Below are positions 2,628 to 47,362 of a DNA stretch of 64,000 bases, piece after piece; position 1 is the first letter of the stretch; every line of letters starts with the position of its first letter. Below the pieces are notes generated by a model that ran no database searches, was not told where the DNA came from, and saw only the letters and a list, made by a program, of their open reading frames with translations. The position numbers and the translations under genes are program-made. Origin of the DNA: Lactarius indigo (lineage: Eukaryota; Basidiomycota; Agaricomycetes; Russulales; Russulaceae). The DNA is taken from the NCBI GenBank assembly GCA_025766275.1, contig JAFKAC010000033.1:372001-436000 (forward strand), read 5' to 3'.

Positions 2628-2906
2628 TGTCACGGTTCCAGCGGACCGTTCGTGACCTGCGAGTTCCGGGCTCAAGACAAGAGCAAGGGAGATGTCGAGA
2701 CTTGATCAACGATCAAGTACAAGTCGGGGGTATCGTGGCTCAAGCCAAAGGCTATCGCACAAGAGAGGGAGTCAGACGATGGTTCAGTGGGCAAGACAAG
2801 GCAAGGCTAAGATTCAAAGGACTAAGAGTAGACAAGTTATCTACTTGGCTACTCAACTACTCTTATACTCATACAATACTGGGGTTTACTTGGCTGTTTT
2901 CTATGA
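2628..2906 (-). repeat. 3' LTR of element C, first part
   Basis: Starts TGTCACGG and matches 17173-17451 with few differences (for example a CpG change at the CGCAC(A/G)AGAG site). It is interrupted by D and resumes at 10788. The last five bases, TATGA (2902-2906), are the D target site. Short ORFs here are LTR sequence, not genes. Confidence 0.93.
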
Positions 2907-3437
2907 TGTTACGTTTCGGACTTGTACGGCGATATTCGACTGAGGACCCTTACTGTACCGGTTGCAACTACGGCGGTAAGGTAGATTAGTTGCGGACTTA
3001 CGATAGGCGATTACGAGTACGATAGGAGATTGCGCGCTGATTGCTGACTGAGGACTGTGCCACTAATACTAGTAGTAGTAGTATTAGGATTCGAGCTACT
3101 TACGCGATACGTTGGACGCTACTATACTGTGACTCATAGCAGCGCTTGAAAGCCTGCTAGACTTGTATTTAAACCGTCTTGTGAAGACCAAGATACGCCA
3201 TCTTGGTCTTCTTGAATCGTCACTTTCTTGTTCCACTCTCGTCTTCATTCTTAACTCTAAAACCTCATTCTAATATCTGCCCTTATCGCAAGTCAGCAAA
3301 GAGTCTTGTCGGTGTACCTCCGAGTATTCACTAAAGGCAAGAGCACGGGCTTCCACGCCGTCGTGTCGTTCTACGTTTGCTAAGTTGTTACCGCTTCCAT
3401 CGAGCTCAAGTCGAGCTGACGTCGTGACGGCGTTACA
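2907..3437 (+). repeat. 5' LTR of element D
   Basis: 531 bp, TGTTACG to CGTTACA. TATA box TATTTAAA lies at 3166-3173 and the predicted transcript start, ATCTTGGTCTT, at 3200-3210. The reverse complement of that 11-mer lies 6 bp upstream, making a palindrome over the start. U3 carries a second palindrome with 8-bp arms CTAATACT/AGTATTAG near 3063-3087. Confidence 0.96.
3166..3210 (+). promoter_or_regulatory. Predicted core promoter and mRNA 5' end of element D
   Basis: TATTTAAA at 3166 is followed 34 nt later by ATCTTGGTCTT (3200-3210). This 11-mer is the exact complement of the primer-binding site at 3440-3450, which fixes the likely start of R. The same 33-34 nt spacing is seen in A, B, C, E, G, H, J and K. 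Confidence 0.75.
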
Positions 3438-3439
3438 TT

Positions 3440-3450
3440 AAGACCAAGAT
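3440..3450 (+). promoter_or_regulatory. Self-priming primer-binding site of element D
   Basis: AAGACCAAGAT lies two bases inside the 5' LTR. It is not an obvious tRNA 3'-end complement but pairs perfectly over 11 nt with the predicted mRNA 5' end in the LTR. This is the arrangement known for Tf1 of fission yeast. Confidence 0.8.
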
Positions 3451-3456
3451 ATCATC

Positions 3457-5508
3457 GTGGCCGTAACAACAAGAGATCAGTGGACGAACTTCCGTCCTTA
3501 TTCGCTCCCAAGAAGAGGAGAACGCAACGTCCCCACGCGCTTTTTACGAGCTGCTGGTTGGAGGGAAAGAGAAGAAGAAACCGGATATTTTGTGGAATTC
3601 AACGGACCTACTAGGTTCCGACCAGTTGAGTTCAACTTCGACCATTTGTGCTGGACGGAGGTTACGTGGAACCCCATAGAATCCCAGTGGGACGTTATAC
3701 GACCAGCAGGACCCAGATATCAGTGTGATATCGACGCCAGAGAACTCAACAGCCGAGCAGATTGGGGGCCCATCGACGGACAAGTACGAGAACACTCCAC
3801 CGGAGAAATAGTTTCAGAAGAAGGAGAAGGGCAAAGCCAAGACGAAAACGAAAGTGAAGGACGAGAACCGAACCAAACAGAAACTAGCGGGGGAGCAATA
3901 CAAGACTTCCTCATCGAACGAGCTGAGTCTGCACACATCACAGAGCCCGAACCGATTCACATCCGATCACCAGCTATCATGGCGACAATAACACGAGCCA
4001 TGGAAGAAGTCGCAATAGAAGAAGCACGCGTAGTGCGAGAAGAAGCACGAGAAATCCTCATGCCCATTAACCCAGAAACTGGCGTACGAATGACCGCAGA
4101 CGACGCAGCAATCTTTCGAGCAATAGGGTCAGACCGAGGAGACCCCCCGTCTGGACGACAACCCGCACTAGACCTCCCACCTGGAATAGGAGGACCGGGA
4201 GGAGACCCGCCACCGCCACCGGGAGGGGGCATCCCGTTCGACTTACGAAGAACCGAACCGCCAAGAATGCCACCCATGGGACCACCAGGAGGTGGAGGAG
4301 GTGGTGGAGGAGGAGGTGGAGGTGCCGGAGGGCATCATGGAGAAAAACTAACCGGCGAGCCACCTTCCATTTTCGACGGGGACAGACTCAAAGTAGACCA
4401 ATTTCTAACACAGTGGCACGTCTACTGGGGCATGAATCTCGACGCCCCCATCATGCGCAACGATTACAGGAGATGCCTCCTGTTTTTATCTTACATCAAA
4501 GGCGGAGCAGTCAGCGAATGGGTCCTATCCTTCCTGAACTGGCTCAATAGACAAATACAACGAGGGATTAGTCCCTATACTCGTGATCTATGGGAAGCCG
4601 TAGCAGATGGATTCAGCCAGAGGTTCGAAAACACACTAGAAAGAGAACAAGCCCAAGCCATACTACGAAAGGGCTTCCGGATGGTGGGAGAGGACATCGA
4701 CAAGTACGTCAATGATTTCGAGCAGCTCGCACGGAAGGCTCATTACCGCCTCAACGAACCACAAACCATCGACCTCTTCACGTCGGGTCTACCCAAGGAA
4801 CTATTCAAAAACGCGTTCCAGTTCGACGACCCCATCACGTTCGACGACTGGAAGAGGGCAGTTCTTAAGCGACAAAAGAACTATATACACCTCAAGGCAC
4901 GACTCAATGAGCACAAGAACACGACAACACAGCCGAAGAAACAGAGCGGTAACGCTGGGTGGACACTTCCGCAAAACTTACCACAAACAAACCCATGGGC
5001 AATGGATACTTCGGCCGATCGAGCCAAGGTAAGGCTTGCGGGGTCTGAAGAAATAGACTTCAACAAGCTGCCACATCGTGACTGGACCGCACCGCCATTC
5101 CCGCCAAGAGGAGGACCGGGTGCACGAGGACGAGGCAGGGGCGGATCTCGGAGGGACCTAAGGAACGTCCTCTGTTATAACTGTCACGCCCCTGGCCACC
5201 TCTCACGAAATTGTCCCTATCCACGCACGCAGCCCCAATGGCAGGCCGCCACGACCAGCAGCCGCATGACCGAAACCACGGAGTACCCTCCGGGACCCGT
5301 CTCGCAGTACGCGCCGTCGCAATACGCGCCGTCATTACCCGGGTACATGTCGCCCGCAAGCGCGACACCCGCACCTCAAATCAATGCGGCCAAGACGGCA
5401 GGAGAACAAGCCAAGGAATGGCTCACACAGGTGGCCAACAGTACGGATGAGGTGAAAGACCTCATACTTCAAGATCTATGGGGAAAAGAGGGTTTTCGGG
5501 ACGCCTGA
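3457..5508 (+). CDS. gag: Gag polyprotein of element D (GTG start proposed)
   Basis: 683 codons forming the virus-like particle and binding RNA. The order is: a conserved N-terminal region (RDQW..FRPYS, FNFDHLCWTEVTWNP), an acidic stretch, a Pro/Gly hinge with a long Gly run (about residues 275-295), a retrotransposon Gag capsid region (about 300-490), and a CCHC zinc knuckle CYNCHAPGHLSRNC (about 573-586). There is no ATG near the start; the first in-frame ATG is codon 175. An in-frame TAA at 3439-3441 closes the frame upstream. GTG at 3457 has A at -3 and G at +4, and is conserved across families, so I use it as the start. The last 31 nt overlap pol in another frame. Confidence 0.9.
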   Translation: MAVTTRDQWTNFRPYSLPRRGERNVPTRFLRAAGWREREEETGYFVEFNGPTRFRPVEFNFDHLCWTEVTWNPIESQWDVIRPAGPRYQCDIDARELNSRADWGPIDGQVREHSTGEIVSEEGEGQSQDENESEGREPNQTETSGGAIQDFLIERAESAHITEPEPIHIRSPAIMATITRAMEEVAIEEARVVREEAREILMPINPETGVRMTADDAAIFRAIGSDRGDPPSGRQPALDLPPGIGGPGGDPPPPPGGGIPFDLRRTEPPRMPPMGPPGGGGGGGGGGGGAGGHHGEKLTGEPPSIFDGDRLKVDQFLTQWHVYWGMNLDAPIMRNDYRRCLLFLSYIKGGAVSEWVLSFLNWLNRQIQRGISPYTRDLWEAVADGFSQRFENTLEREQAQAILRKGFRMVGEDIDKYVNDFEQLARKAHYRLNEPQTIDLFTSGLPKELFKNAFQFDDPITFDDWKRAVLKRQKNYIHLKARLNEHKNTTTQPKKQSGNAGWTLPQNLPQTNPWAMDTSADRAKVRLAGSEEIDFNKLPHRDWTAPPFPPRGGPGARGRGRGGSRRDLRNVLCYNCHAPGHLSRNCPYPRTQPQWQAATTSSRMTETTEYPPGPVSQYAPSQYAPSLPGYMSPASATPAPQINAAKTAGEQAKEWLTQVANSTDEVKDLILQDLWGKEGFRDA

Positions 5509-8500
5509 ACCCATCAGTCTGGGTGAGGGCTCTTCAATGTAATTCTGTAATTGTGACAACGCGCTATCGATCTATGCGAATTCCAGTAACTGTCCGTACG
5601 AATTACCAAACGACTGAAACCAACGCGCTCATCGACTCCGGCGCAACCGACAACTTTATCCGCCCAAGCCTAGCAAAACGGGCCGGAGTGCAAACACAAC
5701 CACTAGACATCCCTCGCAAGATATGGAATATAGACAACACGGAGAACAAAGCTGGGTTAATCACTCATTATGTTAACCTAGAAGTGAAAACACGGGGACA
5801 GATAAAACAAATGACCTTCCTAGTCACCGATCTAGGAAGCGAAGACATGGTGCTGGGATACCCCTGGTTGAGTGCGTTCGAACCGACAATCAACTGGGCC
5901 ACGGCCACCCTACACCCCGATATGCAACCAGTGACACTAGCAACCACTGAAGCGTTGCTATCGTCAATAACCACTCGAGCCCTCATTGTGGCCGAGAAAC
6001 AGGACATCGTACGTGAATTAGAAGAAGAAATGTCCATCCGAGCCACCACCTCGACGGAATTGGCTATACAAGCTAAACAGCACCAGACGGCAGCAGTGCT
6101 TCCTCCCGAATACGCGATGTTCGCCAAACTTTTCAACGAGCAGGCCTCACACCGCTTCCCCCCGGCACGGCCCTGGGATCATGCCATCGACTTCAAACCG
6201 TCCGCGCCGGCCGCCATCGACTGCAAGATTTATCCGATGACTCAAAAGGAGGAGAGTGAACTTAAAGAGTTCCTCGACGAGAAGCTAAAGCAGGGATATT
6301 TACGCCCTTCCATCTCCCCGTACGCCTCCTCTTTTTTCTTCATCAAAAAGAAGGATGGAAAACTACGACCCGTACAGGACTACCGAGTTATCAACTCCCA
6401 CACCATTCGCAACCAATACCCGCTCCCGCTTATACAGGACCTTATTCTCGACCTCAGCAACGCCCACATCTATACGAAGCTCGATATCCGATGGGGCTAC
6501 AATAACATACGCATCCGCGACGGCGATCAAGAAAAGGCAGCGTTCAAAACCAAATTTGGCCTTTTTGAACCCACTGTCATGTTCTTCGGACTCACCAACT
6601 CCCCCGCCACCTTCCAGGCCATGATGAACCACATCTATCGTGACACGATAGCAAAGCATGAACGCTTGGGCACTACTATACGTGTTTATATGGATGACAT
6701 CGGTATCGCCACTCACTTTGATCATGATCTAGTGGCCCATGTCAACGCCGTCCGCGATGTGTTACGTGTCGCGGAAGAGCACGACCTTTACTTCAAACTC
6801 GAAAAGTGCCTGTTTCATCAACCGCGGATGGATTACCTGGGGGTAATCCTTGAGAGGGGGGTGACCCGAATGGACCCCGTAAAAGTTCAGGGCATCAAGG
6901 ATTGGCCAACACCAACGAAAGTCAAGGACGTCCGCTCCTTCCTCGGCTTCTGTAACTTTTACAGACTTTTCATCCGCGGTTTCGCAACTCACGCCAAGCC
7001 GCTCACTAAACTAACACGAAAAGACGAAGAGTGGCGGTGGACTGAAGAAGAAGAAAAGGCGTTCAACACTCTAAAACGCCTCGTAACGGAAGAACCGGTG
7101 CTAGCACACCCCGTTCTTCAAGATCCATTCGAGTTAGAGGTGGACGCCTCGGGCTACGCGGTGGGAGCCGTACTACTGCAAAAGAAATCTGACGGCAAGC
7201 GACACCCCATAGGTTACTACTCGGCGACGCTTTCCGAAGCCGAAAGAAATTACGACATCTACGACCTAGAACTACTCGCAATAGTTAAGGCCTTACGAAA
7301 CTGGCGACCACTTCTTGCTGGCGCCCCTCACAAAATCAAGATCTACTCGGATCACCTAAACTTGCAGTACTGGAAATCACCGCAAAAGATTAGCAGACGA
7401 GTTGCTAGGGAAGTACTTGAGCTTTCCGAATATGATTTTGAAATTCATCACATCAAGGGAAAGAACAACGGGCGAGCAGATGCATTGTCAAGACGACCGG
7501 ATTACGACCAAGGAATCGAAGACAACAGCGAAGTAGTGGTCCTACCCCCCGAAGTCTTTGTGCGAACCCTCAATACCGCACGCACCTTCGTCGCCAATCC
7601 AAACCTCCTACAACCACGCCACCAGCAAGATGAGAAAGTGATCAAAGTATGGGCTGATCCCTACCACCTCAAAAAGATACAGGGGGAGTGGTACAAAGAT
7701 GGCCGGTTCGTAATCACAGGACCGGCATCCACTCAGCGCGTACTAATACACGACCATCACGACACGCCGATACACGGCCATCCGGGGATTGCGAAAACCC
7801 AACGCATCCTGGAGAGGCACTACTGGTGGCCGCGACTTCGCCGGGATGTATACGAATACGTACAAGGTTGCGCAGAGTGTCAGAGAAACAAAGTTAACAC
7901 AAGACCCATACGAGCCGCACTACACCCCATCACGCCAATACTAGAAGCCATGCCGTTCCAAACGGTAGCGGTAGACTTCATCACTAAACTTCCTGTCTCC
8001 AAGGGGTACGACAGCATACTAACTGTCACGGACCACGACTGTAGCAAGGCATCCATCTTTATTCCGTGTAAAGAAGAAATTACCGCAGAAGAAACGGCGA
8101 CCCTGTACGTCGCCCAGGTGTTCAAACGTTTCGGGTTGCCACGCAAGATAATAAGCGACCGCGACCCCCGCTTTACATCCAAATTCACCAGAGAAGTATG
8201 CCGCATCTTGGGAATTCAGCAGAACATATCCACTGCGTATCACCTGCGTACTGACGGACAGTCCGAGCGCACCAACCAATGGCTGGAGCAGTACTTGCGC
8301 TTTTGGGTAAATGAACAACAAGATGACTGGGAGGCTTATCTACCAATCGCTGAATTCGCGCACAACAACTGGCCACATGAACACACCAAGGAATCGCCGT
8401 TTCAACTTCTAATGGGATACAATCCGCTAGCTGATTGGACGGATAAGCCCTCTCCAATTCCCCTTGTAACCGCACGACTGACACAGCTGAAAGAAGCTAG

Positions 8501-10220
8501 AGAAGACGCCCAACGCCTCATGAAGAAGGCACAAGAATCATGGGTGCGCAACAAAGATACGCCCAAATTCAAAGTCAACGACCTCGTGTGGCTTGAAGGC
8601 AAGCATCTTCGCACCAATCAGCCAACGGCAAAATTAGCGGCGCGACGCCACGGACCGTTCCGGGTGATACAGGTGATGTCCCCCTATAACTATCGATTGG
8701 AACTTCCCACGCAGTGGAGCATCCACTCAGTGTTTCACATCGATCTTCTCACCCCATACAAACAAACCCCCTTACACGGGGAGAACTTCACACGACCGCC
8801 ACCGGAATTAATCGATGGAGAAGAGGAGTACGAAGTCGAGGCCATTCTAGACGCCCGGCACTTCGGCAGGGGGAAACGCCTTCAATATCTGATCAAATGG
8901 AAGGGGTACCCAGACTCGGAGAACCAGTGGGTCAACAAGGACGACGTCTTTGCGCCCGAAGCCCTTCGCCTATATCAGGAAAAACAGACGCGCGGGAGGA
9001 TGATTAAAACGGGGAGCGTAACGACGAAGGAAAGTATTCCCCTCTTCCTTCGCTCAACTACTACCACTCTTATGCCTACTTCCCCATTGCGACATGTCAC
9101 ACAAGCGCAACTCCTCGACTCCCTCGCAGACGACGCCCGCGCCCTCCTCGCGGAGGACGACGACACCGAAGTTCCCAATACTCAGCTCACGCCATGGACA
9201 CCTCTTGCACCAACAGAGGGGCCCATCACCGCGCAAGAATGGATCAACGTCGTCACCAGGTTCCCCGATCCAACAACCACACCCGACGACGACCGAGCCG
9301 TCGTCCACGTCTTCCGAAACGACAGCGGTGAGCGTGAACCCATCGCCGCTATCCCCCCAAGCGACGACCTCATCGGCGTTCGCGGAGTTTTCCCGAGCAA
9401 CGACCAGCGTTCAAGCGCTGATGGAGTACGAGTTGGAGGGGTGGAGGAGGGTAGCGGCAGCGTGGCAGAAGGAGCAGCTGGACTCGGCAGCGGCCCGACT
9501 GAGGGAGATGCGCGAGCGACGGCAGCGATGGCGGCAGCTGAGGCTGGCCATGACGACGAAGATTATTACCCGGCGAGACACCCCTTCCTTCGAACGAAAC
9601 GCGACCCTGATAATCCCCTCATCACGCCCTGGCTCGTCTACACCGACGGGTCCCCCATGTATCGAGGACGTGTGCGCGTGCCTGGTGCCGCCGATCACCG
9701 TCCGTTCACCGCCGCCGAAGACCCCGCGCATGTCATTGCGCCTGAAGGGTTCCGGGCGAACAGACGACCCCATTACATTCAGTACCCCATCACCGGACCC
9801 GACGGAGTAGAGAGGAACGCATCGCACGTTCAGATCATCGGAGGGGCGGACCCCCTCATATTGGGAGTTATACCGGGCTCGCCGCATGTTTATGGTAAGC
9901 CCTTCTACGCCGAACCCCACGTTTCCGCCGCGCTCCGCCCCACGTACCCGCACGAGGACCTCGTGGTCTTCGAGGCCGACAAGATCACCGATCGCGCACT
10001 CAATCGTATCAACGATGAGTCGCTCACTGCGGAAGTCACGCGCTTCCGCGCGGCCAGCTACGAGCTGGACCGACTCCGTGCCAGGGTGAGTCAGCTACGC
10101 GCGATGATCGAGTGCGCCCAAGACGACAGGCGCGACGCCATCTACCGTCTGGAGCGCGCGACGGCCTTGGAGCGCATCGCCGACGAACAGCGCGATTGGC
10201 CGGCTCGCGACTTTCGGTGA
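5478..10220 (+). CDS. pol: Pol polyprotein of element D: protease, RT, RNase H, integrase, chromodomain, tail
   Basis: 1,580 residues, uninterrupted. Aspartic protease DSGAT is near residue 53. RT has KKDGKLRPVQDYR and catalytic YMDD near 404. RNase H DASGYA is near 556. The integrase HHCC finger (HGHPG..CAECQ) is near 760-805, with D,D,E in VDFITKLP (~832), SDRDPRF (~894) and SERTNQ (~930). The chromodomain EYEVEAIL..YLIKWKGY is near 1116-1160. A ~400-residue tail follows that is conserved in B, E, G and J and ends in a likely coiled coil (LDRLRARVSQLRAM). It is made by frameshift from gag, or from its own ATG at 5478. The widely conserved YHPRTDGQ reads YHLRTDGQ, a CCG to CTG change that may weaken the integrase. 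Confidence 0.95.
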   Translation: MGKRGFSGRLNPSVWVRALQCNSVIVTTRYRSMRIPVTVRTNYQTTETNALIDSGATDNFIRPSLAKRAGVQTQPLDIPRKIWNIDNTENKAGLITHYVNLEVKTRGQIKQMTFLVTDLGSEDMVLGYPWLSAFEPTINWATATLHPDMQPVTLATTEALLSSITTRALIVAEKQDIVRELEEEMSIRATTSTELAIQAKQHQTAAVLPPEYAMFAKLFNEQASHRFPPARPWDHAIDFKPSAPAAIDCKIYPMTQKEESELKEFLDEKLKQGYLRPSISPYASSFFFIKKKDGKLRPVQDYRVINSHTIRNQYPLPLIQDLILDLSNAHIYTKLDIRWGYNNIRIRDGDQEKAAFKTKFGLFEPTVMFFGLTNSPATFQAMMNHIYRDTIAKHERLGTTIRVYMDDIGIATHFDHDLVAHVNAVRDVLRVAEEHDLYFKLEKCLFHQPRMDYLGVILERGVTRMDPVKVQGIKDWPTPTKVKDVRSFLGFCNFYRLFIRGFATHAKPLTKLTRKDEEWRWTEEEEKAFNTLKRLVTEEPVLAHPVLQDPFELEVDASGYAVGAVLLQKKSDGKRHPIGYYSATLSEAERNYDIYDLELLAIVKALRNWRPLLAGAPHKIKIYSDHLNLQYWKSPQKISRRVAREVLELSEYDFEIHHIKGKNNGRADALSRRPDYDQGIEDNSEVVVLPPEVFVRTLNTARTFVANPNLLQPRHQQDEKVIKVWADPYHLKKIQGEWYKDGRFVITGPASTQRVLIHDHHDTPIHGHPGIAKTQRILERHYWWPRLRRDVYEYVQGCAECQRNKVNTRPIRAALHPITPILEAMPFQTVAVDFITKLPVSKGYDSILTVTDHDCSKASIFIPCKEEITAEETATLYVAQVFKRFGLPRKIISDRDPRFTSKFTREVCRILGIQQNISTAYHLRTDGQSERTNQWLEQYLRFWVNEQQDDWEAYLPIAEFAHNNWPHEHTKESPFQLLMGYNPLADWTDKPSPIPLVTARLTQLKEAREDAQRLMKKAQESWVRNKDTPKFKVNDLVWLEGKHLRTNQPTAKLAARRHGPFRVIQVMSPYNYRLELPTQWSIHSVFHIDLLTPYKQTPLHGENFTRPPPELIDGEEEYEVEAILDARHFGRGKRLQYLIKWKGYPDSENQWVNKDDVFAPEALRLYQEKQTRGRMIKTGSVTTKESIPLFLRSTTTTLMPTSPLRHVTQAQLLDSLADDARALLAEDDDTEVPNTQLTPWTPLAPTEGPITAQEWINVVTRFPDPTTTPDDDRAVVHVFRNDSGEREPIAAIPPSDDLIGVRGVFPSNDQRSSADGVRVGGVEEGSGSVAEGAAGLGSGPTEGDARATAAMAAAEAGHDDEDYYPARHPFLRTKRDPDNPLITPWLVYTDGSPMYRGRVRVPGAADHRPFTAAEDPAHVIAPEGFRANRRPHYIQYPITGPDGVERNASHVQIIGGADPLILGVIPGSPHVYGKPFYAEPHVSAALRPTYPHEDLVVFEADKITDRALNRINDESLTAEVTRFRAASYELDRLRARVSQLRAMIECAQDDRRDAIYRLERATALERIADEQRDWPARDFR
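5481..5496 (+). promoter_or_regulatory. Putative -1 ribosomal frameshift site, gag to pol (element D)
   Basis: In the gag frame the overlap contains two X XXY YYZ heptamers: G GGA AAA at 5481-5487 and G GGT TTT at 5490-5496. Pol is in the -1 frame. Only GGGTTTT is kept in B, E, G and J, so it is the better candidate. A and H have GGATTTT at the same place. Confidence 0.65.
9094..9810 (+). CDS. Overprinted +1-frame ORF inside the 3' end of pol (element D)
   Basis: 238 codons from ATG 9094 in the +1 frame of pol. No known family recognised. A Ser/Thr/Pro-rich N-terminal half precedes a predicted helical core (ELEGWRRVAAAWQKEQL and onward, about residues 110-160). The C-terminus has LRLKGSGRTDDPITF. 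The same ORF occurs in B (17817-18629), E, G and J with the same start region and core. Over 41 codons of the core I count 15 identities between D and B in this frame, against about 9 in 40 in the pol frame. How it would be translated is unknown. It could still be a by-product of pol coding. Confidence 0.5.
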   Translation: MSHKRNSSTPSQTTPAPSSRRTTTPKFPILSSRHGHLLHQQRGPSPRKNGSTSSPGSPIQQPHPTTTEPSSTSSETTAVSVNPSPLSPQATTSSAFAEFSRATTSVQALMEYELEGWRRVAAAWQKEQLDSAAARLREMRERRQRWRQLRLAMTTKIITRRDTPSFERNATLIIPSSRPGSSTPTGPPCIEDVCACLVPPITVRSPPPKTPRMSLRLKGSGRTDDPITFSTPSPDPTE

Positions 10221-10238
10221 GTCTGGGGCCTCACGCTT

Positions 10239-10251
10239 AGAAAGGGGGTGA
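10239..10251 (+). other. Polypurine tract of element D
   Basis: A purine-rich run ending AAAGGGGGTGA sits directly against the 3' LTR, the usual primer for plus-strand DNA synthesis. Similar tracts precede the 3' LTRs of B, E, G, H, J and C. Confidence 0.8.
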
Positions 10252-10782
10252 TGTTACGTTTCGGACTTGTACGGCGATATTCGACTGAGGACCCTTACTG
10301 TACCGGTTGCAACTACGGCGGTAAGGTAGATTAGTTGCGGACTTACGATAGGCGATTACGAGTACGATAGGAGATTGCGCGCTGATTGCTGACTGAGGAC
10401 TGTGCCACTAATACTAGTAGTAGTAGTATTAGGATTCGAGCTACTTACGCGATACGTTGGACGCTACTATACTGTGACTCATAGCAGCGCTTGAAAGCCT
10501 GCTAGACTTGTATTTAAACCGTCTTGTGAAGACCAAGATACGCCATCTTGGTCTTCTTGAATCGTCACTTTCTTGTTCCACTCTCGTCTTCATTCTTAAC
10601 TCTAAAACCTCATTCTAATATCTGCCCTTATCGCAAGTCAGCAAAGAGTCTTGTCGGTGTACCTCCGAGTATTCACTAAAGGCAAGAGCACGGGCTTCCA
10701 CGCCGTCGTGTCGTTCTACGTTTGCTAAGTTGTTACCGCTTCCATCGAGCTCAAGTCGAGCTGACGTCGTGACGGCGTTACA
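10252..10782 (+). repeat. 3' LTR of element D
   Basis: 531 bp. I see no mismatch to the 5' LTR at 2907-3437. It is followed by target duplication TATGA at 10783-10787. Confidence 0.96.
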
Positions 10783-10787: not shown

Positions 10788-10902
10788 CACATACATGGTA
10801 GCACCATAAGGCGTGCTACTTCTGAAACTTTGAGTCAGTCTTTCGCAATACTTGTTCGCTGGCGTTTGTGACGCGTGACCGTGATGTCACATGATCGTGA
10901 CA
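10788..10902 (-). repeat. 3' LTR of element C, second part
   Basis: Continues the C LTR after D and ends GATCGTGACA. It corresponds to 17452-17566, with one CpG change and a small rearranged palindrome at the terminus. The minus-strand purine tract AGAAGGGGGACTA lies just inside at 10903-10916. Confidence 0.9.
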
Positions 10903-10938
10903 TAGTCCCCCTTCTAGGTTTATTCGTCCACGAATGAG

Positions 10939-11580
10939 CTAGGGGCTTCGATCGGCAGCCTCCCAGTCAACATCGTAGGGGTATTCGTAGTCATCCACGG
11001 GCTGATCGTCAATGGTGATGCGGCGTCGACGGCGCCGAGGGTGTGCAACGGGTTGGAGGGCTCGTTCAGGGGAGTCGTGTACCCATGCGTGTGTCCGTGC
11101 TGTCAGCGCGTTACTTGGTATCGAGGATGTGAGACATGCGGTCCCATAGTGAGGGTGTCGAGATGGGACGACGCAATGTTGTCGTTGGGGGCACCTAGTG
11201 TGAGGTTGTTGACAGAAAGCCTTGGTGTGTCCGACACCGTGGCAGTAGTGACAACGGCGGGCGTCCGTTTGTCGCAAAGATTGGTTTGCGCTCTCTCGTG
11301 GTACAACAAGAGACGCGTCGTGATTTGGGTCGGGGTTCGTTACGGTCAGTCGTTGCAGTGTTGTCTCGGTTTCGGGTTCACGACCGGGAGTCGAACAGTG
11401 TTGGTTTTGCGCGTGGTGTCGGCGATGAATACTCTTGTTGTTATCACGCAAGGAACGGCCTCGCGAGACCTGTAACGGGGAACGAGTGATCGTGCCGATG
11501 TTCAGCAGCTCTCTCCAGCATAGGGCTTCGACCCTGGGGAGCTGCCATCGTTGTGCTAGGCGAAGGATTAGCGTCCATTC
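10939..11580 (-). pseudogene. C-terminal part of element C polyprotein: BTB tail and CCHC zinc knuckle
   Basis: Open frame after the second TGA. The first 27 codons (EWTLILRLAQRW onward) look like the helical extension that follows the BTB domain in mushroom BTB proteins. Further on, CHYCHGVGHTKAFC is a canonical C-x2-C-x4-H-x4-C knuckle, the RNA-binding finger normally found at the end of Gag. A basic run RRRRRR and an acidic end follow. No ATG starts this part, so it would be made only as part of the longer frame. Confidence 0.7.
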
Positions 11581-12312
11581 TCACGTAGTCGCTTCATAAA
11601 TGGAGTAGTCTGGGTTATAGAAGACCCATAGGAGCAATTCAAGCTCCTCGGTCGTTACTTCGTCGAGTGCGACGTAGTACGGTTCTGCGGTGGCGTCGTT
11701 TTCACCTGAAACTGGCCCGTCGTTACTGAGATCAATGGGTGTTTCTGCTGTAGCCCCCATGACCTTCCAAAGTCGGCGGAAATATGGTGATTTGCGCGTG
11801 AAGAAGTAACTGTGAACGCGAAACATGCAGTCGTTCGTCGTAAATACTGCATCTGCGCCTGTTATGTCGTAGAGGCGGTGTCGGCAGGGGGCGTCCGTCC
11901 CTGAATTAGTATGAGGTGGTTCCCCCTTCTGGTCGGCACCTGTGTTTTCCTGGATGCGGGCACTGGTCGAGGTACCATGGTCAGGAATGACGATGGGTTG
12001 ACCTAGTCCCTCGGGTTCCGCAGTGTCAAGGGATGACGATGGTGTCGGCTCTGGGTGAATGTGTCGACCTTCTTCGATAGGGAGAGGAGTGGGGGCTGTG
12101 CGTTTGTCGTCTGACTCGAATGTCCACTGGACAGGGAGTTGGTCGGCCGTGATGGCTGTGGTCAGTGGGGAGTTCTCGTCCATCGTTGGGTAATTCATGG
12201 CGGTGGGATCGATGTTCGACAGTACTCGCTTCTTATGTTGTGCGAGTCGCGCTGGTATTTGGTCGTTGTCTAGGGGTTTTACCCTATCATGCATGGTGGA
12301 GCATTTCTTTTG
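11581..12312 (-). pseudogene. BTB/POZ-domain part of element C polyprotein
   Basis: 237 codons from ATG 12294, in frame with the Pol-like part six codons upstream. The N-terminal 135 residues are disordered and polar. Residues ~140-237 match the BTB fold pattern common in agaricomycete proteins: FRVHSYFFTRKSPYFRRLW, then ALDEVTTEELELLLWVFYNP. BTB domains dimerise and often recruit cullin-3. It looks like a captured host gene fragment, since autonomous elements here carry a chromodomain at this place. Confidence 0.72.
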
Positions 12313-15300
12313 TCATATCGGAGGTAGCGGTGTTGTCTTCTTGATTGGTGTCTCTTGGCTTCTGATAGTATCGATTGTACGATCGGGGATGAGCAATTTC
12401 TCATAGAACACGTTATGGGCCTTCCCCAGTTTCGGTGAACGTGTCTTATCTGAAATATGAGATGGTTTACATGGTTGTGGCGTGAGTTCGCCGTGTGTTG
12501 TTTGATGATTTCTGATCGACCCTTTTCTAATCGCTGTAATCGATGAGAGATTTCTGTGGAGTGTGTTCCATATGGTGAGATGTTTGTCGCTTGTTTGCGA
12601 GATGATAGGTATCTGCCGATGTGTCGAGGGTATGGACCCCGTGAGTGTCTCGTATGGGTACCGTGTTGTCTCCTTAGACGGTTGTGTGTCGTGGGCGGAT
12701 AGTGTTACTAGTAACTGTGTTGTACATTCGCTATACCATCGCGGGTTGGCACGAGTATCAAGATATTGCACTCGTCGTTGGCTCAGACTTTTTGGTCGAT
12801 CGTTGGTGTACGAGCAGTATTTTGAATGGGTGTTTGGTGGAGTGTAGGGGGCGCGTGTGAGTATGGTGATAATGCGTAGGCCTCGCTCGGATGGTGTCTT
12901 GCTTGGTAGTCCGCAGTGTGGTGGCATGCGGTCGCTGGACAGGTTAGTCATCCTTTCGATGTCACCGTTTTCTTTTGTCAGTATGATGACTCTGATTTTG
13001 GAACGTCTTTGATTGGTGGTGGTAACGAAATTGAGAGACTTGGAGGTCTTGGCGTCGGAGTCCTGGATAAATGTGTTGAAACGGGATGTACTTCGTCGCG
13101 GATTGATAGACGACAAGGGTGCGCGGGGTAATTTTGGGAGATTTTTGTTTTCGTGTGGGTGCTTCATGGTGATTGAGTCGTGAAGCGACTGAATTACTCC
13201 CCTCCTCAGAAGGGGATCGTCCGTGATCACAAGATGGTCGTTGCAGAACCAAGGGTTGGCAGCGCCATGTGTCGGGGGATGGGGAGAACGAACGTCGGTC
13301 ATGACGGTCAGAACGGTTATGAGGAGGTGCAACAAGGGCAGAACGACAACAGGGAAAATGTCAGTGTCGGGCGAAGTAAGGGCAGGGTGACGAGGAAGGG
13401 TAGCGGTATGAGGGTGTGTGTTACGGATGTGCCAATGTCGAAGGTCGTAGTTCGTCAGGATGAGGCGGGCGACCTGGTGGCGCTGGAGATTCACGAGGAT
13501 GAAGACCGGGTATCTTGCGTCGACGAGCAGACGTCGCCAGCGTACAAGAACATGTATCGGCGCGAAGAGTTCGCGATCGTGTGCGTAGTGGTTACGATCG
13601 ATGGGGGAGGGTAGCGGCGGAAAGCAGTCGACGATCGGCGTTTCTTCTCGACCGTTGAATTGTGTAAGGGTGGCGTCCGTATCGCACCACAAGGCATCGG
13701 TTTGTCGACGTATGGGGCACGAGTAGGCAATGTTGAGAAGGATGCCGAGTGTCGTAGCGTGCTTCGTTGTGTATAAAAGAGAGTTGGTCATTTGCGTAAG
13801 AGGTTGGACAGGTTCGGTGTGTCGCGAAGTTAATAGTTTTTGGCGTCCGAGAGTCTCCAGGGTACAGCAACTTTGTTGGATGGCAGAGAGTGTTCGTGAT
13901 CGATGTTGTCGACTGAAGTGGTCCAATTTGTTTGTATCAAGACACGGAGCAGTTTGTGGCGCGCGTAGCTGAGAATGATCAAAATTGACATATTGTCCAA
14001 AGAAGTGAACAGTTCTGTCGAGTAAGTTTGAGGTACGGGATGGGAGACGTGATTCGTTATTCGTTTGGAGGTTCACCAGAGAATCGATCAACCAAGAGGG
14101 TACGATCGTTGGTTCAGCTAGTTCTTTACTCGTAATCTGGCGTTGTTTCCTATCCTGACCCCAGGTGGTAGCATACATTTGACGTATGTCGGACGCGGTA
14201 AGGCGCGTCTTGTCAGTCAGCTGATCTAGGACGTCTGGAATTAGTAGGATTGTACATGCATTCCATAACGTCAATTGTTTTAGCGGTTGGTATCTTAGTT
14301 GTCGTTTTTCGTCTTTCACTCCTAAACAGAAGAGGGGTGACTGAGGTTTACAACAACATTCCTTCACGAGGTCTTCCGTCATAGAACCGTCTAAGCATTC
14401 GAACTCGTTTAGTGAGCATATTTTGTTCGATGTGATCGTTGGTTTATCGGGTGCTGATGCGATCACATGATCGTCGTTTCGTTGTGGTGGGAATCTCCGT
14501 TCGGTTCCTTCCGGTGGGGTCGTCGTCAGGTCCGCGTAACGCTTTCTTAACGACTTTCTTCTTGTCCCCTGCGCGATGGTGTCGACCCTGGTACTTTGTT
14601 GCAACGTGATGTGTCGTTCTACCTCCGGTATTTCTTTGTCGGTTCGGCTGATTACCAGGTGAGTTCCTCTTATAGCCTTAATGTATAGAGGTGTAGTATA
14701 GGGGGGTAATTCCCATTGGGTTGTTTCTCGATACGCAAGAACTATGTCGTCTCGTTGGTTCGATGCTTCACTTGCACTGGTGATGGGGCGAGGTTCGCAG
14801 AATTCTAGTTCGAGGTTCAATCTCCCCTTCCTACTGTGATTGGTGACTCTGTCCGAGGTTCCCGAGTCGCTTATTGCAACCGCGTCGTCTCGATGTTCTT
14901 CTCCGTGTGTCGTGATCACTTTAGACGACGTAGTTTCGTGATTTTTGATGCGTCCGTCCGGGGTTTCGTTTCTCTTTTCGCTTTGGTTGTCGGGGTTGTT
15001 CATCGTCTCCGGCGCGAGTTCAGCAACTTTGTCGTGGTGTTCTTTCACGGGCATATGAATTGTAAGTGGTTTTACTGTCGTACCCTCATCGCTTCCGGCG
15101 TTCTCATTCTTTCGTTCGTTTTCCAGTCTTTTTGCGAGTCGTGATACCACTTTTCGTCGCGTACTGATGTCCGTGCCTCGGAGTTCAGTCGCGATTTGTT
15201 TCAGTGTGAGCTCGTCGACGTTCAGTATTTGCGCGATTATTTTCCGCCTAGCGGCGACGTCCATTCTTCGAATCTCGATCGCGATTCGTTCCGTCGATAA

Positions 15301-16848
15301 TTGTTCGTATGCTGATGTCTTTCGTGTCACGAGTTTTCTTGGTAGGAACGTGGTGACTTCTTTGGCTGTCTCTGGCTTGCACCGGTTGTTTCGCGGGGAT
15401 CGCGACACTGTTTTCAATGGGGGCTTGCTTTCGAATTTCTCGAAACGTGGTTCGTTCCGATTCATTCTTATTACCTTGGCGGGCGTAGTGACTCGGTCAT
15501 CTAGTGCGTCTCCTCGTGCGTTTCTGTCGCACGGGCTTCGGCTTACCTGGTTGGTACGTGTGTCATCCAGTGCGTCTCCGCGTGTAACGGTCTTACACGG
15601 GCTTCGACTTAGCTGGTTCGCGTACGCCATCCGGTGCGTCTCCTCGTGTAGTGGTTCCACACGGGCTTCGACTTGACTAACGCGCGCGTACCGTTTCGGA
15701 GCTCGTTCCTCTATGTTTAGAGGGCAATTCTTCGACGTGTCTTCCAAGTTATCGATGTTCGTTTTCCGGGTATTCGGTGTGTCCTCGGTATTCATGTACA
15801 ACAAATACTCCTTTGTTGTGGCCTTTGCATTTCCGATGACTATCTCTATTGACTCATGGTCGTGGGAGTCTTCGACTCTCGCTTCGTTACCCGTCGCTGG
15901 GGTTTCTGATCGAAGTTCCCGTTGTACTTCTGCCTGATAAGTAATCGGTTTCGTTTCGAAGTTCATGGGTTGGGGGTGACTACGTGTCATCGATTCCCCT
16001 GTGTCGATGATGTACGTCGTGTTGCGTTCGTAGGTGCGTGATTCCATTTCGGTTCTGTCGTGTCCTTGCTGATGGCAGTCAGTATGGTCCCTGAATAATG
16101 TTCTTGTCGGTCTGTTTTCTTTGAGCCGTCGAGCCTCGTTCGGGAGTCGAACGACCTCCTCTATGCCGTGGTCTGTTTTGCTGTCAGGTCCTGGGGTTCC
16201 GTATCGTACTTCCGTGCGAGAAGCGCTTGGTCGTGGATTGGAGTTCGCATACGGGAGATGATTCTTCGTTATCGATGAGGCGTTTATCGATCTCTGTGTG
16301 TCCGTACGTTGCTCTTTTTCGTTGCTGTCGTGTTTCTCTATGCGCTGACATCCGCCTATTCGGTTGTCGTGATTCCTCAGGGGTGTTTTTTTTGTTGGTT
16401 CTCTCTCGTGGCACAGGGTTCTGTGCTCTGTCGTTCGCGTCCCTTCGCAGTTACCGTGCGATTCTGTATCCGTGTGCTCAAGTCGTCTGGCGTGGGGCTC
16501 GTTTGCTTCGACTCTTGTGTTGTTGAGTCGTTTCGTGCTCGTCTCATGAGCCGTCTGTGTCCTGCTGATCTGTTCCGTAGATCGTTCGTTTGCGCCATAC
16601 TTTGCGCGGTTCGGGAATGTCGAGTTGTCTCCCTCGTTAATGAAGGATGGCGGTTCCGGTTTATCAGTTGTACACTCTACGTCGTGTCCGTCCACTGGTT
16701 CAATATACGCGAGTTGTCTCAAGCTATCCATTGTGTGGCCTGGTCCTGAGTGTTGCATGTCCGCGCGGGGAACGTCATGCGTACAAATCGTGGTTTCGTG
16801 GGGACGCGTTTCGCCTCGTCCAGCAGCAACAGTTTCGGTTCTAAGCAT
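12313..16848 (-). CDS. Diverged, catalytically dead Pol-like protein of element C
   Basis: 1,511 codons from a true ATG. The first ~250 residues are polar with no known domain. Residues 275-350 and 656-735 each look protease-like (IIDTGES; SDSGTSD then DIVLAY). From ~784 the order of a gypsy Pol can be followed: RFPPQRNDDHVI (RFPPSRxWDHAI in sisters), SPLFCLGVKDEK (RT fingers), TASDIRQM (first RT Asp kept), then FFGQYVNF where YMDD should be. RNase H-like text is at 1050-1135 (DTDAT and DRELFA kept, third Asp lost). Integrase-like text follows (HLVITDDPLLRRGVI; TTRYPYETLTG) without the DDE residues, and ends at HNVFYEKLLIP. The reading frame stayed open while the active sites were lost. Confidence 0.75.
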   Translation of the reverse strand: MLRTETVAAGRGETRPHETTICTHDVPRADMQHSGPGHTMDSLRQLAYIEPVDGHDVECTTDKPEPPSFINEGDNSTFPNRAKYGANERSTEQISRTQTAHETSTKRLNNTRVEANEPHARRLEHTDTESHGNCEGTRTTEHRTLCHEREPTKKTPLRNHDNRIGGCQRIEKHDSNEKEQRTDTQRSINASSITKNHLPYANSNPRPSASRTEVRYGTPGPDSKTDHGIEEVVRLPNEARRLKENRPTRTLFRDHTDCHQQGHDRTEMESRTYERNTTYIIDTGESMTRSHPQPMNFETKPITYQAEVQRELRSETPATGNEARVEDSHDHESIEIVIGNAKATTKEYLLYMNTEDTPNTRKTNIDNLEDTSKNCPLNIEERAPKRYARVSQVEARVEPLHEETHRMAYANQLSRSPCKTVTRGDALDDTRTNQVSRSPCDRNARGDALDDRVTTPAKVIRMNRNEPRFEKFESKPPLKTVSRSPRNNRCKPETAKEVTTFLPRKLVTRKTSAYEQLSTERIAIEIRRMDVAARRKIIAQILNVDELTLKQIATELRGTDISTRRKVVSRLAKRLENERKNENAGSDEGTTVKPLTIHMPVKEHHDKVAELAPETMNNPDNQSEKRNETPDGRIKNHETTSSKVITTHGEEHRDDAVAISDSGTSDRVTNHSRKGRLNLELEFCEPRPITSASEASNQRDDIVLAYRETTQWELPPYTTPLYIKAIRGTHLVISRTDKEIPEVERHITLQQSTRVDTIAQGTRRKSLRKRYADLTTTPPEGTERRFPPQRNDDHVIASAPDKPTITSNKICSLNEFECLDGSMTEDLVKECCCKPQSPLFCLGVKDEKRQLRYQPLKQLTLWNACTILLIPDVLDQLTDKTRLTASDIRQMYATTWGQDRKQRQITSKELAEPTIVPSWLIDSLVNLQTNNESRLPSRTSNLLDRTVHFFGQYVNFDHSQLRAPQTAPCLDTNKLDHFSRQHRSRTLSAIQQSCCTLETLGRQKLLTSRHTEPVQPLTQMTNSLLYTTKHATTLGILLNIAYSCPIRRQTDALWCDTDATLTQFNGREETPIVDCFPPLPSPIDRNHYAHDRELFAPIHVLVRWRRLLVDARYPVFILVNLQRHQVARLILTNYDLRHWHIRNTHPHTATLPRHPALTSPDTDIFPVVVLPLLHLLITVLTVMTDVRSPHPPTHGAANPWFCNDHLVITDDPLLRRGVIQSLHDSITMKHPHENKNLPKLPRAPLSSINPRRSTSRFNTFIQDSDAKTSKSLNFVTTTNQRRSKIRVIILTKENGDIERMTNLSSDRMPPHCGLPSKTPSERGLRIITILTRAPYTPPNTHSKYCSYTNDRPKSLSQRRVQYLDTRANPRWYSECTTQLLVTLSAHDTQPSKETTRYPYETLTGSIPSTHRQIPIISQTSDKHLTIWNTLHRNLSSITAIRKGSIRNHQTTHGELTPQPCKPSHISDKTRSPKLGKAHNVFYEKLLIPDRTIDTIRSQETPIKKTTPLPPI

Positions 16849-17161
16849 CGTGATTCGGTTTCGTGGGGACGTGTTACGCCTCGTCCAGTGGTAGCAGGGT
16901 TCCGGGTTTCGTTGGTGACTCGCAGTCTCGATCGTACTGAGTGTCGGTGTGCTACGCGTCCGCTCGGGACTGTTACGCGCACGGTTCTGGTTTCAGGGAA
17001 CGCCTTTCGCCTCGTTCTGCGGCAACCGGGGTTCGCGCGTGCAGGGAGAATCTATCGTCCTTCCCTACAGCAACTTCGAGGTTCAGGCTACTGGGGAGAT
17101 CGATTGTCTCGTCCGGTAGTTCGTGAGAACGACTTGCGCCTCGTTCGTGGCAGGGTAAGAG
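16849..17161 (-). repeat. Leader of element C with diverged direct repeats
   Basis: Untranslated leader between the primer site and ATG 16848. A unit of about 38 bp with core CGCCTCGT (plus strand) recurs at about 16794-16830, 16859-16897, 16991-17027 and 17119-17153. The copy at 16794 lies in the first codons of the ORF. The repeats may be a packaging or dimerisation signal, but nothing here proves it. Confidence 0.55.
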
Positions 17162-17171
17162 GTCTACTCTT
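17162..17171 (-). promoter_or_regulatory. Self-priming primer-binding site of element C
   Basis: Minus-strand AAGAGTAGAC lies one base inside the 5' LTR. It pairs over 10 nt with GTCTACTCTT at the predicted mRNA start (17369-17378, minus), which is 34 nt downstream of TATAAGAG (17405-17412, minus). The sequence differs from the primer sites of the autonomous elements, yet both halves changed together. Confidence 0.75.
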
Positions 17172-17172
17172 A

Positions 17173-17566
17173 TGTCACGGTTCCAGCGGACCGTTCGTGA
17201 CCTGCGAGTTCCGGGCTCAAGACAAGAGCAAGGGAGATGTCGAGACTTGATCAACGATCAAGTACAAGTCGGGGGTATCGTGGCTCAAGCCAAAGGCTAT
17301 CGCACGAGAGAGGGAGTCAGACGATGGTTCAGTGGGCAAGACAAGGCAAGGCTAAGATTCAAAGGACTAAGAGTAGACAAGTTATCTACTTGGCTACTCA
17401 ACTACTCTTATACTCATACAATACTGGGGTTTACTTGGCTGTTTTCTATGACACATACATGGTAGCACCATAAGGCGTGCTACTTCTGAAACTTTGAGTC
17501 AGTCTTTTGCAATACTTGTTCGCTGGCGTTTGTGACGCGTGACCGTGATGTCACGATCACGTGACA
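17173..17566 (-). repeat. 5' LTR of element C
   Basis: 394 bp, TGTCACGG to CACGTGACA, followed by target duplication TGGAC (17567-17571). The TATA box and predicted start are on the minus strand at 17412 and 17378. It is near-identical to the 3' copy, so the insertion is young although its protein is very diverged. Confidence 0.93.
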
Positions 17567-17571
17567 TGGAC

Positions 17572-24224: not shown

Positions 24225-24226
24225 AA

Positions 24227-24728
24227 TGTTACGCTCCACTGGCGTTAGTCCAACTTGGACTGCAAGTCAGGCGTAATCGACTTAGCGAAGGTGAGTGAAT
24301 GGGGACCACGTGTCAACCCAACACGAGCTGAACAAGGGCACACTGGCACACGCTGCAGCTAAAGATGATAGAGTACTATCCTTTGGTGGATAGAAGCGGA
24401 GGCACACTTAGTCTGAAGGCTAAGGCAGACAAGAGACGAGTCAAGTGGTGGATTGAAGAAGACCAAGATGGAGACTCTTGGTCTTCCGAGTCAACTACTT
24501 ATACAGATACGCGCGGGCTTTAAAGCGCCGCTGGAACAGTAAGTAACCAGTAGCGTAACTAGCTCGAACCCTAGTACAGCTATCCTAGGAATGAGTCATA
24601 CATGAGTCACAATCACATGCGAACTACTATGCTGACTGATACGAAGTAAGAGTCCATGACTAATGCTAATACCAGACCGTAGTCATAACCGGCCGTGAGT
24701 CACTTTGTAATAAGTCCGTACCGTAACA
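24227..24728 (-). repeat. 5' LTR of element B
   Basis: 502 bp, partner of 1980-2481, followed by target duplication TCCAA (24729-24733). The promoter is on the minus strand, with a palindrome of 10-bp arms around the predicted start. Confidence 0.95.
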
Positions 24729-24733
24729 TCCAA

Positions 24734-43985: not shown

Positions 43986-43990
43986 TTCGT

Positions 43991-46894: not shown

Positions 46895-46916
46895 GGTGGC
46901 TAGTTCTGAGGTCGGT

Positions 46917-46927
46917 AGCTTCGGCTT
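46917..46927 (-). promoter_or_regulatory. Self-priming primer-binding site of element H
   Basis: Minus-strand AAGCCGAAGCT pairs over 11 nt with AGCTTCGGCTT at 47135-47145 (minus), 34 nt after TATATAAA (47172-47179, minus). Confidence 0.8.
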
Positions 46928-46928
46928 A

Positions 46929-47362
46929 TGTCACGCCACTGTCGGGGCGTGCGTCTGATCTGTAACAGGTCCTGCCTTAGGCAAAGGATACTGAGTCGAC
47001 CCGCTGCTGAGCAGAACGGCATCTAAGTCTGATGGGTGTTCCTTGATATAGCTCAAGGCAACAAGGCTTCAGAGAAGAGGGCGATGATAGAGATGAGAAG
47101 AATGTGCTGAAGGGAGCTAGACAGTATATTGACGAAGCCGAAGCTAAGGAAATACAGGATGTACTACAGGGTTTATATAGCTAGTGCCCAGGAGTGCCAG
47201 CGAGGCAGTGCAATGCCAGCAAGGTCAATGCCAGCAAAGCAGATGCCAGCAAAGCAAAGAAGTGAGGCAAGTGCCAGCAAAGCAGATGCCTGCAAAGCAA
47301 CGAATCAAAGGGACAAATGGAAGGGAAGAAGAAGAGAGGAAAAATATGGGGCGTTCATGACA
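46929..47362 (-). repeat. 5' LTR of element H
   Basis: 434 bp, TGTCACGCC to TTCATGACA, followed by CCAAT. U3 carries about six copies of a TGCCAGCAAAGCA-like unit (47193-47302) directly upstream of the minus-strand TATA box. A 3-frame-open stretch here is LTR, not a gene. Confidence 0.94.

What the first reader, a model, noticed from the sequence alone, without database searches (positions are those of the whole stretch)
10939..16848. Element C: a ~1,970-codon polyprotein built from a catalytically dead Pol, a BTB domain and a C-terminal zinc knuckle
Seen: one minus-strand frame from ATG 16848 to TAG 10939 with only two TGA codons. From residue ~784 it follows the order of gypsy Pol (RFPPQRNDDHVI; SPLFCLGVKDEK; TASDIRQM; DTDAT, DRELFA; HLVITDDPLLRRGVI; TTRYPYETLTG; HNVFYEKLL). 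FFGQYVNF stands where YMDD should be, the RNase H third Asp is gone, and no integrase DDE is visible. The LTRs are nearly identical, so the copy is young, yet the protein is far from every Pol in the window. The lineage therefore kept a long frame open while losing its enzymes. Inference: a non-autonomous element whose protein has a non-enzymatic role such as RNA binding, particle entry or host interaction. I know of no described family with this architecture.
Basis: partly seen in the sequence, partly recalled or inferred. Interest (0 to 1): 0.93.

Follow-up and report, generated by a model that had tools for sequence, protein, structure and literature searches.

The report
Retrotransposon carrying open, drifting fossil gene
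A family of jumping genes in a fungus-like genome keeps about 1,600 codons of its dead enzyme genes free of stop signals although their protein sequence drifts almost freely, apparently only so that ribosomes can reach a small, well-preserved protein at the far end.

Summary
Element C is a genuine LTR retrotransposon (5-bp TSD, Tf1-type self-priming site, PPT) on the minus strand, inserted in element B and interrupted by element A. The window copy has two in-frame TGAs, but 5 of 19 related loci read at length carry one open frame of 2,004-2,077 codons. Its middle is collinear with Ty3/gypsy RT-RNaseH-IN; YMDD, RNase H Asp-3 and integrase's second D and E are gone. Between intact copies (18-31% diverged upstream) codon positions 1, 2 and 3 differ almost equally over ~1,600 codons, so residues are near-neutral; yet about 89 expected stops are absent. 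Only the C-terminus (BTB, CCHC knuckle, tail) is clearly constrained (corrected omega about 0.2). A second LTR family carries this module as a 465-codon frame. Relatives with ~2,100-codon frames share C's LTR-end/primer 16-mer and are likely helpers (not read). Best reading: a non-autonomous element whose selected product is a BTB-knuckle protein, reached by translating a fossil gag-pol that is kept open but hardly constrained otherwise. The BTB-knuckle's role is inferred.

The parts
17173..17566 (-). 5' LTR of element C (TGTCAC...GTGACA); TSD TGGAC at 17567-17571
2628..2906 (-). 3' LTR of C, distal piece (TSD TGGAC at 2623-2627), split from the rest by nested element A (2907-10782, TSD TATGA)
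10788..10902 (-). 3' LTR of C, proximal piece
17162..17172 (-). Primer-binding site TAAGAGTAGAC, exact complement of GTCTACTCTTA inside the 5' LTR: Tf1-type self-priming layout
   Evidence: 13 of 13 C copies examined
10903..10915 (-). Polypurine tract AGAAGGGGGACTA next to the 3' LTR
16849..17172 (-). Leader; in this copy no ATG between the putative RNA 5' end (in the LTR) and the ORF's ATG
12316..16848 (-). Fossil gag-pol part of the frame, 1,511 codons before the first in-frame TGA (12313-12315)
13966..14496 (-). RT-like remnant (RFPPQRNDDHVI to VHFFGQYVNFDHSQL); motif A Asp present here, YMDD absent
   Evidence: relatives
13483..13695 (-). RNase H-like remnant; third Asp lost
12385..13236 (-). 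Integrase/C-terminal Pol-like remnant; second Asp and Glu of DDE lost
   Evidence: relatives
11497..11877 (-). BTB domain, interrupted in this copy by TGA at 11581-11583
   Evidence: relatives
11212..11253 (-). CCHC zinc knuckle CHYCHGVGHTKAFC
10942..10998 (-). Conserved C-terminal tail VDDYEYPYDVDWEAADRSP, stop TAG 10939-10941

Best explanation
Element C belongs to a non-autonomous, recently active LTR retrotransposon family derived from a single-frame Gag-Pol ancestor. Its enzymes are dead. Its selected protein product is the C-terminal BTB-CCHC-knuckle-tail module (about 385 residues). The genomic RNA starts at the self-priming sequence; ribosomes scan an ATG-poor leader to the conserved ATG and must translate about 1,600 codons of fossil gag-pol to reach the module. 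So stops and frameshifts upstream are purged while residues drift almost freely. Reverse transcription and integration are supplied in trans by relatives with ~2,100-codon frames that share C's LTR end and primer sequence. That an ORF is maintained at all in a trans-mobilised element implies that its product, or its translation, favours its own RNA in cis; I infer that BTB self-association plus knuckle RNA binding help this RNA into particles. SHOWN by sequence: LTR/TSD/primer/PPT anatomy, dead Pol homology, near-neutral but open upstream frame, constrained C-terminus, shared primer 16-mer. INFERRED: RNA start, translation through the fossil, helper in trans, cis preference, RNA/particle role.
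For: Five of 19 loci read have one frame of 2,004-2,077 codons; a sixth, C179, of 2,043 by table only. Five intact copies: ~2,946 substitutions over ~4,330 upstream sites x 0.03 stop chance = about 89 stops expected, 0 present; a simulated pair gathers 42 +/- 7. Codon-position ratio p3/mean(p1,p2): upstream blocks 1.04-1.23 against simulated neutral 1.02 +/- 0.055; BTB 2.48 (2.00-3.14), knuckle+tail 2.16 (1.67-2.89); functional genes in the window 2.69-7.19. Spectrum-corrected omega: upstream 0.71-0.93, BTB 0.18, knuckle+tail 0.20. Repeat without codon alignment: upstream 0.93-1.11 in 18 of 19 copies; BTB 1.97-4.67 in the 15 measurable. Gaps of 3n: 90 of 150 upstream against 6 of 32 in leader/LTR. 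Copies with LTRs >=99.3% alike: 4 of 5 fully open; with 94.2-98.4%: 0 of 4. Self-priming 11-mer in 13 of 13; first ATG from the putative RNA start is the ORF's in 7 of 13, in frame in 1 more, earlier in 5. Six loci with 465-codon BTB-knuckle frames, one of them (C267) read at its 3' end and showing the same stop-PPT-LTR junction as C. 35 of 46 RT-like hits on contigs C1-C253 have the 16-mer 1,835-1,939 nt upstream.
Against: Upstream omega is below 1 (0.71 in the Gag-like part; ratio there 1.23, CI 1.10-1.38) and replacements are slightly milder than neutral (BLOSUM62 -0.21 against -0.33), so some weak constraint exists. 60 of 150 upstream gaps are not multiples of three in a nucleotide alignment. 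The five intact copies were chosen for being intact. Copies are mosaic and related, so comparisons are not independent; one search compares all to one copy. L037 departs (upstream 1.48, knuckle 1.00; only 2-5% diverged). One genome, no transcripts, no proteins. The helpers' catalytic residues were not read; none of the 150 best RT_RNaseH_2 places (of 2,282 candidates) is among the helper places that I looked up. Nothing tests RNA binding, particles or cis preference. The window copy itself is broken.
Confidence: 0.65

Rival explanations
1. The upstream polypeptide matters, but only through bulk properties (length, charge, disorder), for example as a spacer or scaffold fused to the BTB-knuckle; hence drift in sequence but selection for openness and length.
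For: Weak residual constraint, strongest in the Gag-like part (omega 0.71); length stays 4,746-4,941 nt in 7 copies despite many indels; replacements slightly milder than neutral.
Against: RT-like and IN-like parts show no clear excess of third-position change (1.04, CI 0.92-1.18; 1.09, CI 0.99-1.21); the 465-codon family matches the query only from residue 167 on, that is without the end of the fossil part.
Confidence: 0.15
2. The BTB-knuckle acts on the host rather than on the element's RNA, for example as a Cul3-type ubiquitin-ligase adaptor against silencing factors; openness upstream has the same cause as in the main reading.
For: BTB domains are common Cul3 adaptors (recalled); the genome holds very many BTB places in short frames outside these elements, from which it may have been taken (hits of 33-40% identity).
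Against: A trans-acting benefit would be shared by broken copies and so would not easily keep frames open; the CCHC knuckle is typical of nucleic-acid binding (recalled). Neither point is a test.
Confidence: 0.25
3. One reading: the whole long dead-Pol protein is a selected, non-enzymatic protein.
For: Frame open in several copies.
Against: Near-neutral residue evolution upstream against strong constraint in window Pol and Gag controls.
Confidence: 0.05
4. Plain decay: a pseudogene family whose frame is open by composition, youth or chance.
For: Coding strand is T-poor; the window copy and all 4 of the older dated copies are broken.
Against: Other frames hold 60-91 stops; resampled sequence never exceeds 451 open codons; about 89 expected stops absent.
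Confidence: 0.02

Closest known systems
Tf1/sushi-type self-priming Ty3/gypsy LTR retrotransposons (Tj1/Tf1 passages seen in PMC4600332; Tf1's single ORF recalled)
   Same: LTR, TSD, primer site complementary to the RNA's own 5' end, PPT, RT-RNaseH-IN order
   Different: Catalytic motifs lost; C-terminal BTB-knuckle present
Non-autonomous wheat RLC_Angela elements (passages of PMC9744471)
   Same: Similar in size to autonomous partners, co-evolving with them, decayed CDS
   Different: There the CDS is described as having numerous frameshifts and in-frame stops; here the fossil stays open in young copies
TR-GAG (search listing only) and semi-autonomous RLG_Sabrina_SA (passage of PMC9744471)
   Same: Non-autonomous LTR element that still encodes a protein of its own
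   Different: The protein is BTB-knuckle, not Gag or Gag-Pro, and sits behind a near-neutral fossil frame
LARD (definition recalled)
   Same: Long internal region without functional pol
   Different: Internal region is one open frame with a constrained product
Bdelloid rotifer LTR elements with extra ORF3 (passages of PMC5408684)
   Same: Extra 3'-located coding region in LTR elements
   Different: There an addition to conserved ORFs (abstract start); ORF types differ; 'BTB' occurs 0 times in that text

Membership tests
LTR retrotransposon | LTR pair TG...CA with target-site duplication | tested here: met
   TSD TGGAC for C; matching 5-bp repeats also at L031, L043, L044, L046, L048; one mismatch at L049; L041 and L042 not read cleanly
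Ty3/gypsy, self-priming Tf1 type | 11-nt primer site complementary to LTR-encoded RNA 5' end | tested here: met
   Complementarity in 13 of 13 copies; RNA 5' end itself not mapped
Ty3/gypsy | PR-RT-RNaseH-IN order | tested here: met
   Collinear remnant alignment of four copies with window Pols, tblastn of a relative; PR part poorly alignable
Autonomous Ty3/gypsy | Intact catalytic motifs | tested here: not met
   YMDD, RNase H Asp-3, IN second D and E lost in the four copies aligned
Chromovirus | Chromodomain after integrase | tested here: inconclusive
   A few collinear residues only; no Pfam hit
LARD | No coding capacity internally | tested here: not met
   Open frame and constrained C-terminus
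TR-GAG | Encodes an intact Gag | tested here: not met
   No Gag domain in Pfam; Gag-position knuckle eroded or deleted in the seven aligned copies, intact motif only in L033
BTB/POZ proteins | Pfam PF00651 over curated cut-off | tested here: met
   Over cut-off in P0004 and P0007 (2 of 5 proteins given) and at about 30 bits in the 465-codon frames; below cut-off in the interrupted window copy
CCHC zinc knuckle | CX2CX4HX4C | tested here: met
   Window and 12 of 19 loci at the C-terminal site, frames of 120 aa or more searched; metal or RNA binding not testable here

The most novel reading that the evidence does not exclude
Selection for translatability alone: over 1,500 codons of protein-coding sequence are kept free of stops and frameshifts for many element generations while their encoded residues are almost free to drift, because they are only a road to a downstream domain. 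The one needed gene (BTB-knuckle) sits at the 3' end of at least two non-autonomous or unresolved LTR families, as a modular 'cis-licence' protein.
Probability: 0.55. Interest if true: 0.87.

Novelty: new variant of a known kind. Interest (0 to 1): 0.8.

Why it matters
It separates two things that are normally confounded in coding sequence, selection to stay open and selection on residues, in a natural series of copies with a built-in positive control (BTB-knuckle) and negative control (leader, old copies). It warns that a long conserved open frame need not mean a functional long protein, and that dN/dS near 1 need not mean a dead gene. It also makes the question of how non-autonomous LTR elements keep a gene (cis preference) testable, with likely helper elements in the same genome.

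Tried and rejected
Chance frame: rejected. Active Pol: rejected for the copies aligned (no RVT_1 or rve hit). Stops as introns: not examined beyond the open copies, which have none at these places. NG86 windows (0.44-0.88 upstream of column 1950, 0.23-0.38 in the last three blocks) are biased under strong transition excess and were replaced by codon-position and spectrum-corrected measures. BTB in the ~2,100-codon relatives: none of the places that I looked up is among the 150 BTB places scored of 214 candidates, so absence is not proven; a weak knuckle match near the expected C-terminus of five relatives (E 0.06-0.41) is left open. Whether the 465-codon family has its own pol: the one stretch read, C90:48401-49300, chosen on the guess that the primer site at C90:51051 and the BTB frame at C90:41615 belong to one element, shows no RT and no long frame; undecided. 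Plasmid records: no match for 2,001 bases of the frame. Public protein relatives could not be searched (timed out, 76 switched off). Paper searches for BTB in LTR elements and for open but neutral fossil frames listed no title or abstract start describing this (open-licence PMC papers only; listings seen; the one paper that holds all its terms, PMC7550596, was not opened; passages seen in PMC9744471, PMC5408684, PMC4600332). No structure was predicted.
Full report
ANATOMY. The window is contig C219:372001-436000 of an unnamed 90.3-Mb assembly in 291 contigs. I take it for a fungus from its gypsy elements and many BTB genes; this was not tested. Element C runs on the minus strand. Its 5' LTR is 17173-17566 and its 3' LTR 2628-2906 plus 10788-10902, split by element A (2907-10782, TSD TATGA). 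C has the TSD TGGAC and lies within element B, whose LTRs are 1978-2483 and 24225-24730. The 11 bases after the 5' LTR, TAAGAGTAGAC, are the exact complement of GTCTACTCTTA about 180-210 bases before the LTR's end, in 13 of 13 C copies looked at. Elements A and B show the same arrangement with another 11-mer. This is the self-priming layout reported for Tf1 and Tj1 (passages of PMC4600332). A polypurine tract abuts the 3' LTR.

THE FRAME. From ATG 16848 the frame runs 1,511 codons to TGA, 243 more to a second TGA, and 213 more to TAG at 10939. Resampled sequence never gave more than 451 open codons. The genome holds a family of relatives with matching pieces at about 66-91% DNA identity. Of 19 loci read at length, some of them partial, five have the whole frame open: L039, L041, L044, L045 and L048, with 2,004-2,077 codons between stops. 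L043 has one stop. A further locus, C179, is listed at 2,043 codons without stop but was not read. The window copy is thus a slightly broken member of a family with one long frame.

DEAD POL. Pfam sees nothing in the window's 1,511-aa part. With the relative L045 as query, blastp links it to window Pols (E to 4e-12) and tblastn to other elements (30-39% identity, E to 2e-19). Alignment of W, L045, L044 and L039 with the window Pols A, D and B (first piece only) shows the order RT, RNase H, integrase, with a poorly alignable PR part before it. YMDD is missing in all four. The RT motif A Asp is present in W, L045, L039 and L043 and lost or deleted in L044, L041 and L048. RNase H Asp-1 is present in W and L045, lost in L044 and L039; the third Asp is lost in all four. 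The first integrase Asp is present in W, L045 and L044 (the stretch is deleted in L039); the second and the Glu are lost or deleted in all four. A knuckle at the Gag position is intact in L033 (CFQCKRPGHQIREC), has lost metal ligands in L043, L044 and L048, and is absent in W, L045, L041 and L039.

DRIFT WITHOUT STOPS. Among the five intact copies, upstream pairwise differences are 18-31%. The neighbour-joining tree implies about 2,946 substitutions over about 4,330 sites. Given the observed mutation spectrum, 3% of substitutions would create a stop: about 89 expected, none present; a simulated pair collects 42 +/- 7. Residues, by contrast, are nearly free. Codon positions differ almost equally: p3/mean(p1,p2) is 1.23 (Gag-like, CI 1.10-1.38), 1.04 (PR-RT), 1.09 (RH-IN) and 1.16 (linker), against 1.02 +/- 0.055 in the stop-free neutral simulation. 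BTB gives 2.48 (2.00-3.14), the post-BTB linker 1.48 (1.21-1.81), knuckle plus tail 2.16 (1.67-2.89). Window genes serve as positive control: Pol A against D 5.24, Gag A against D 5.33, Pol B against A 2.69. Corrected for the mutation spectrum, omega is 0.71, 0.93, 0.79 and 0.80 upstream, 0.18 in BTB, 0.40 in the post-BTB linker, 0.20 in knuckle plus tail. A repeat that uses no codon alignment (blastn to L045) gives 0.93-1.11 upstream in 18 of 19 copies (L037, only 2-4% diverged, 1.48), 1.97-4.67 for BTB in the 15 copies where it can be computed (L037 has no change at positions 1 and 2; 3 others lack the part), and 1.59-3.12 for the knuckle in 12 of 13 (L037 1.00; 6 others lack it). Columns present in fewer than 4 of 5 or 5 of 7 copies were dropped. 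Gap lengths are multiples of three in 90 of 150 upstream gaps, 13 of 25 in the tail, and 6 of 32 in LTR plus leader.

AGE. LTR pairs could be measured inside 9 of 19 loci, in L039 and L042 over part of the LTR only. Where they are at least 99.3% identical (L039, L041, L043, L044, L048), four of five frames are fully open; where they are 94.2-98.4% (L031, L042, L046, L049), none of four is. The window copy's pair is 98.2% alike (388 of 395) and its frame has two stops. This fits frames that are open on arrival and decay afterwards, mostly by TGA in the tables.

START OF TRANSLATION. From the putative RNA 5' end, the first ATG is the ORF's own in W, L038, L039, L043, L044, L045 and L048; in L041 an earlier ATG lies in the same frame; in L031, L042, L046, L047 and L049 earlier ATGs occur. 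Shuffled leaders (last 150 bases of the LTR plus leader) of seven copies hold 2.6-3.9 ATGs on average; six of the seven hold none, L041 one. These leaders are related, so this is supporting, not decisive.

THE MODULE. BTB passes Pfam's cut-off in two of five proteins given. The stretch from about 44 residues before BTB to the tail matches, at 50-52%, six loci with a separate open frame of 465 codons and some partial ones; their BTB scores about 30 bits. At one of them, C267, the stop of that frame is followed at once by a similar short spacer, a polypurine tract, the TGTCACGATC LTR start and GTCTACTCTTAGTCC, as in C. So a second LTR family carries the module in a frame of its own; its interior was not read except for an uninformative 900 bases at C90 that may not belong to it.

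HELPERS. The 16-mer TRACATAAGAGTAGAC (LTR end plus primer site) occurs 138 times, the pattern read backwards never. I took 61 RT-like hits from the capped table; on contigs C1-C253, which the listing covers, 35 of 46 have the 16-mer 1,835-1,939 bases upstream on the same strand, including 7 of 9 with frames of at least 1,900 codons. Most of these long frames show no stop in the match; C109 shows one TGA. They are the likely source of enzymes, but their catalytic residues were not read, and that they mobilise C is inferred.

WHY THIS MECHANISM. Constraint at the end and openness before it are what is expected if one long translation is the only way to the end. A product kept intact in a trans-mobilised element argues for action in cis. 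RNA binding by the knuckle and self-association by BTB would fit, but neither was tested. Weak residual upstream constraint leaves room for a bulk role of the fossil part.

LIMITS. One genome; no expression data; intact copies were selected for the stop-deficit test, though one search uses all loci read at length; relatedness and mosaic exchange make comparisons dependent; public protein databases were unavailable; the assembly seems to hold two haplotypes (mirrored BTB clusters on C218 and C259), so copy numbers are not independent counts, although the five intact copies, 18-31% apart, are unlikely to be alleles.

Noticed in passing
window 2907-10782: Element A is a very young self-priming gypsy element with long Gag and Pol frames (LTRs 100% identical over 535 nt) inserted in C's 3' LTR.
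   Followed up: partly
window 1978-24730: Three-deep nesting: A in C in B; B's LTRs are 99.4% identical over 506 nt.
   Followed up: partly
window 40732-46930 (-): Another broken gypsy element whose RNase H-integrase part is the best in-window match to the C family's fossil Pol.
   Followed up: partly
G000 C218:290-410 kb and C259:1.87-2.16 Mb: Dense, mirrored clusters of BTB places, suggesting a large BTB expansion and two haplotypes in the assembly.
   Followed up: no
G000 C225:316409, C245:84289, C46:393678, C239:364165, C236:404247: Weak knuckle matches (E 0.06-0.41) 4.2-4.4 kb downstream of the RT-like start of five relatives, two of them inside listed frames of over 1,500 codons: the helper may carry a C-terminal knuckle too.
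   Followed up: partly
L032:1828-2406: Frame with two CCHC-like knuckles in tandem near a C copy.
   Followed up: no
G000 C90:51051, C238:62098, C269:54421 and others: Copies of the primer 16-mer or leader with only a 73-codon similar frame behind them, possibly another non-autonomous family.
   Followed up: partly
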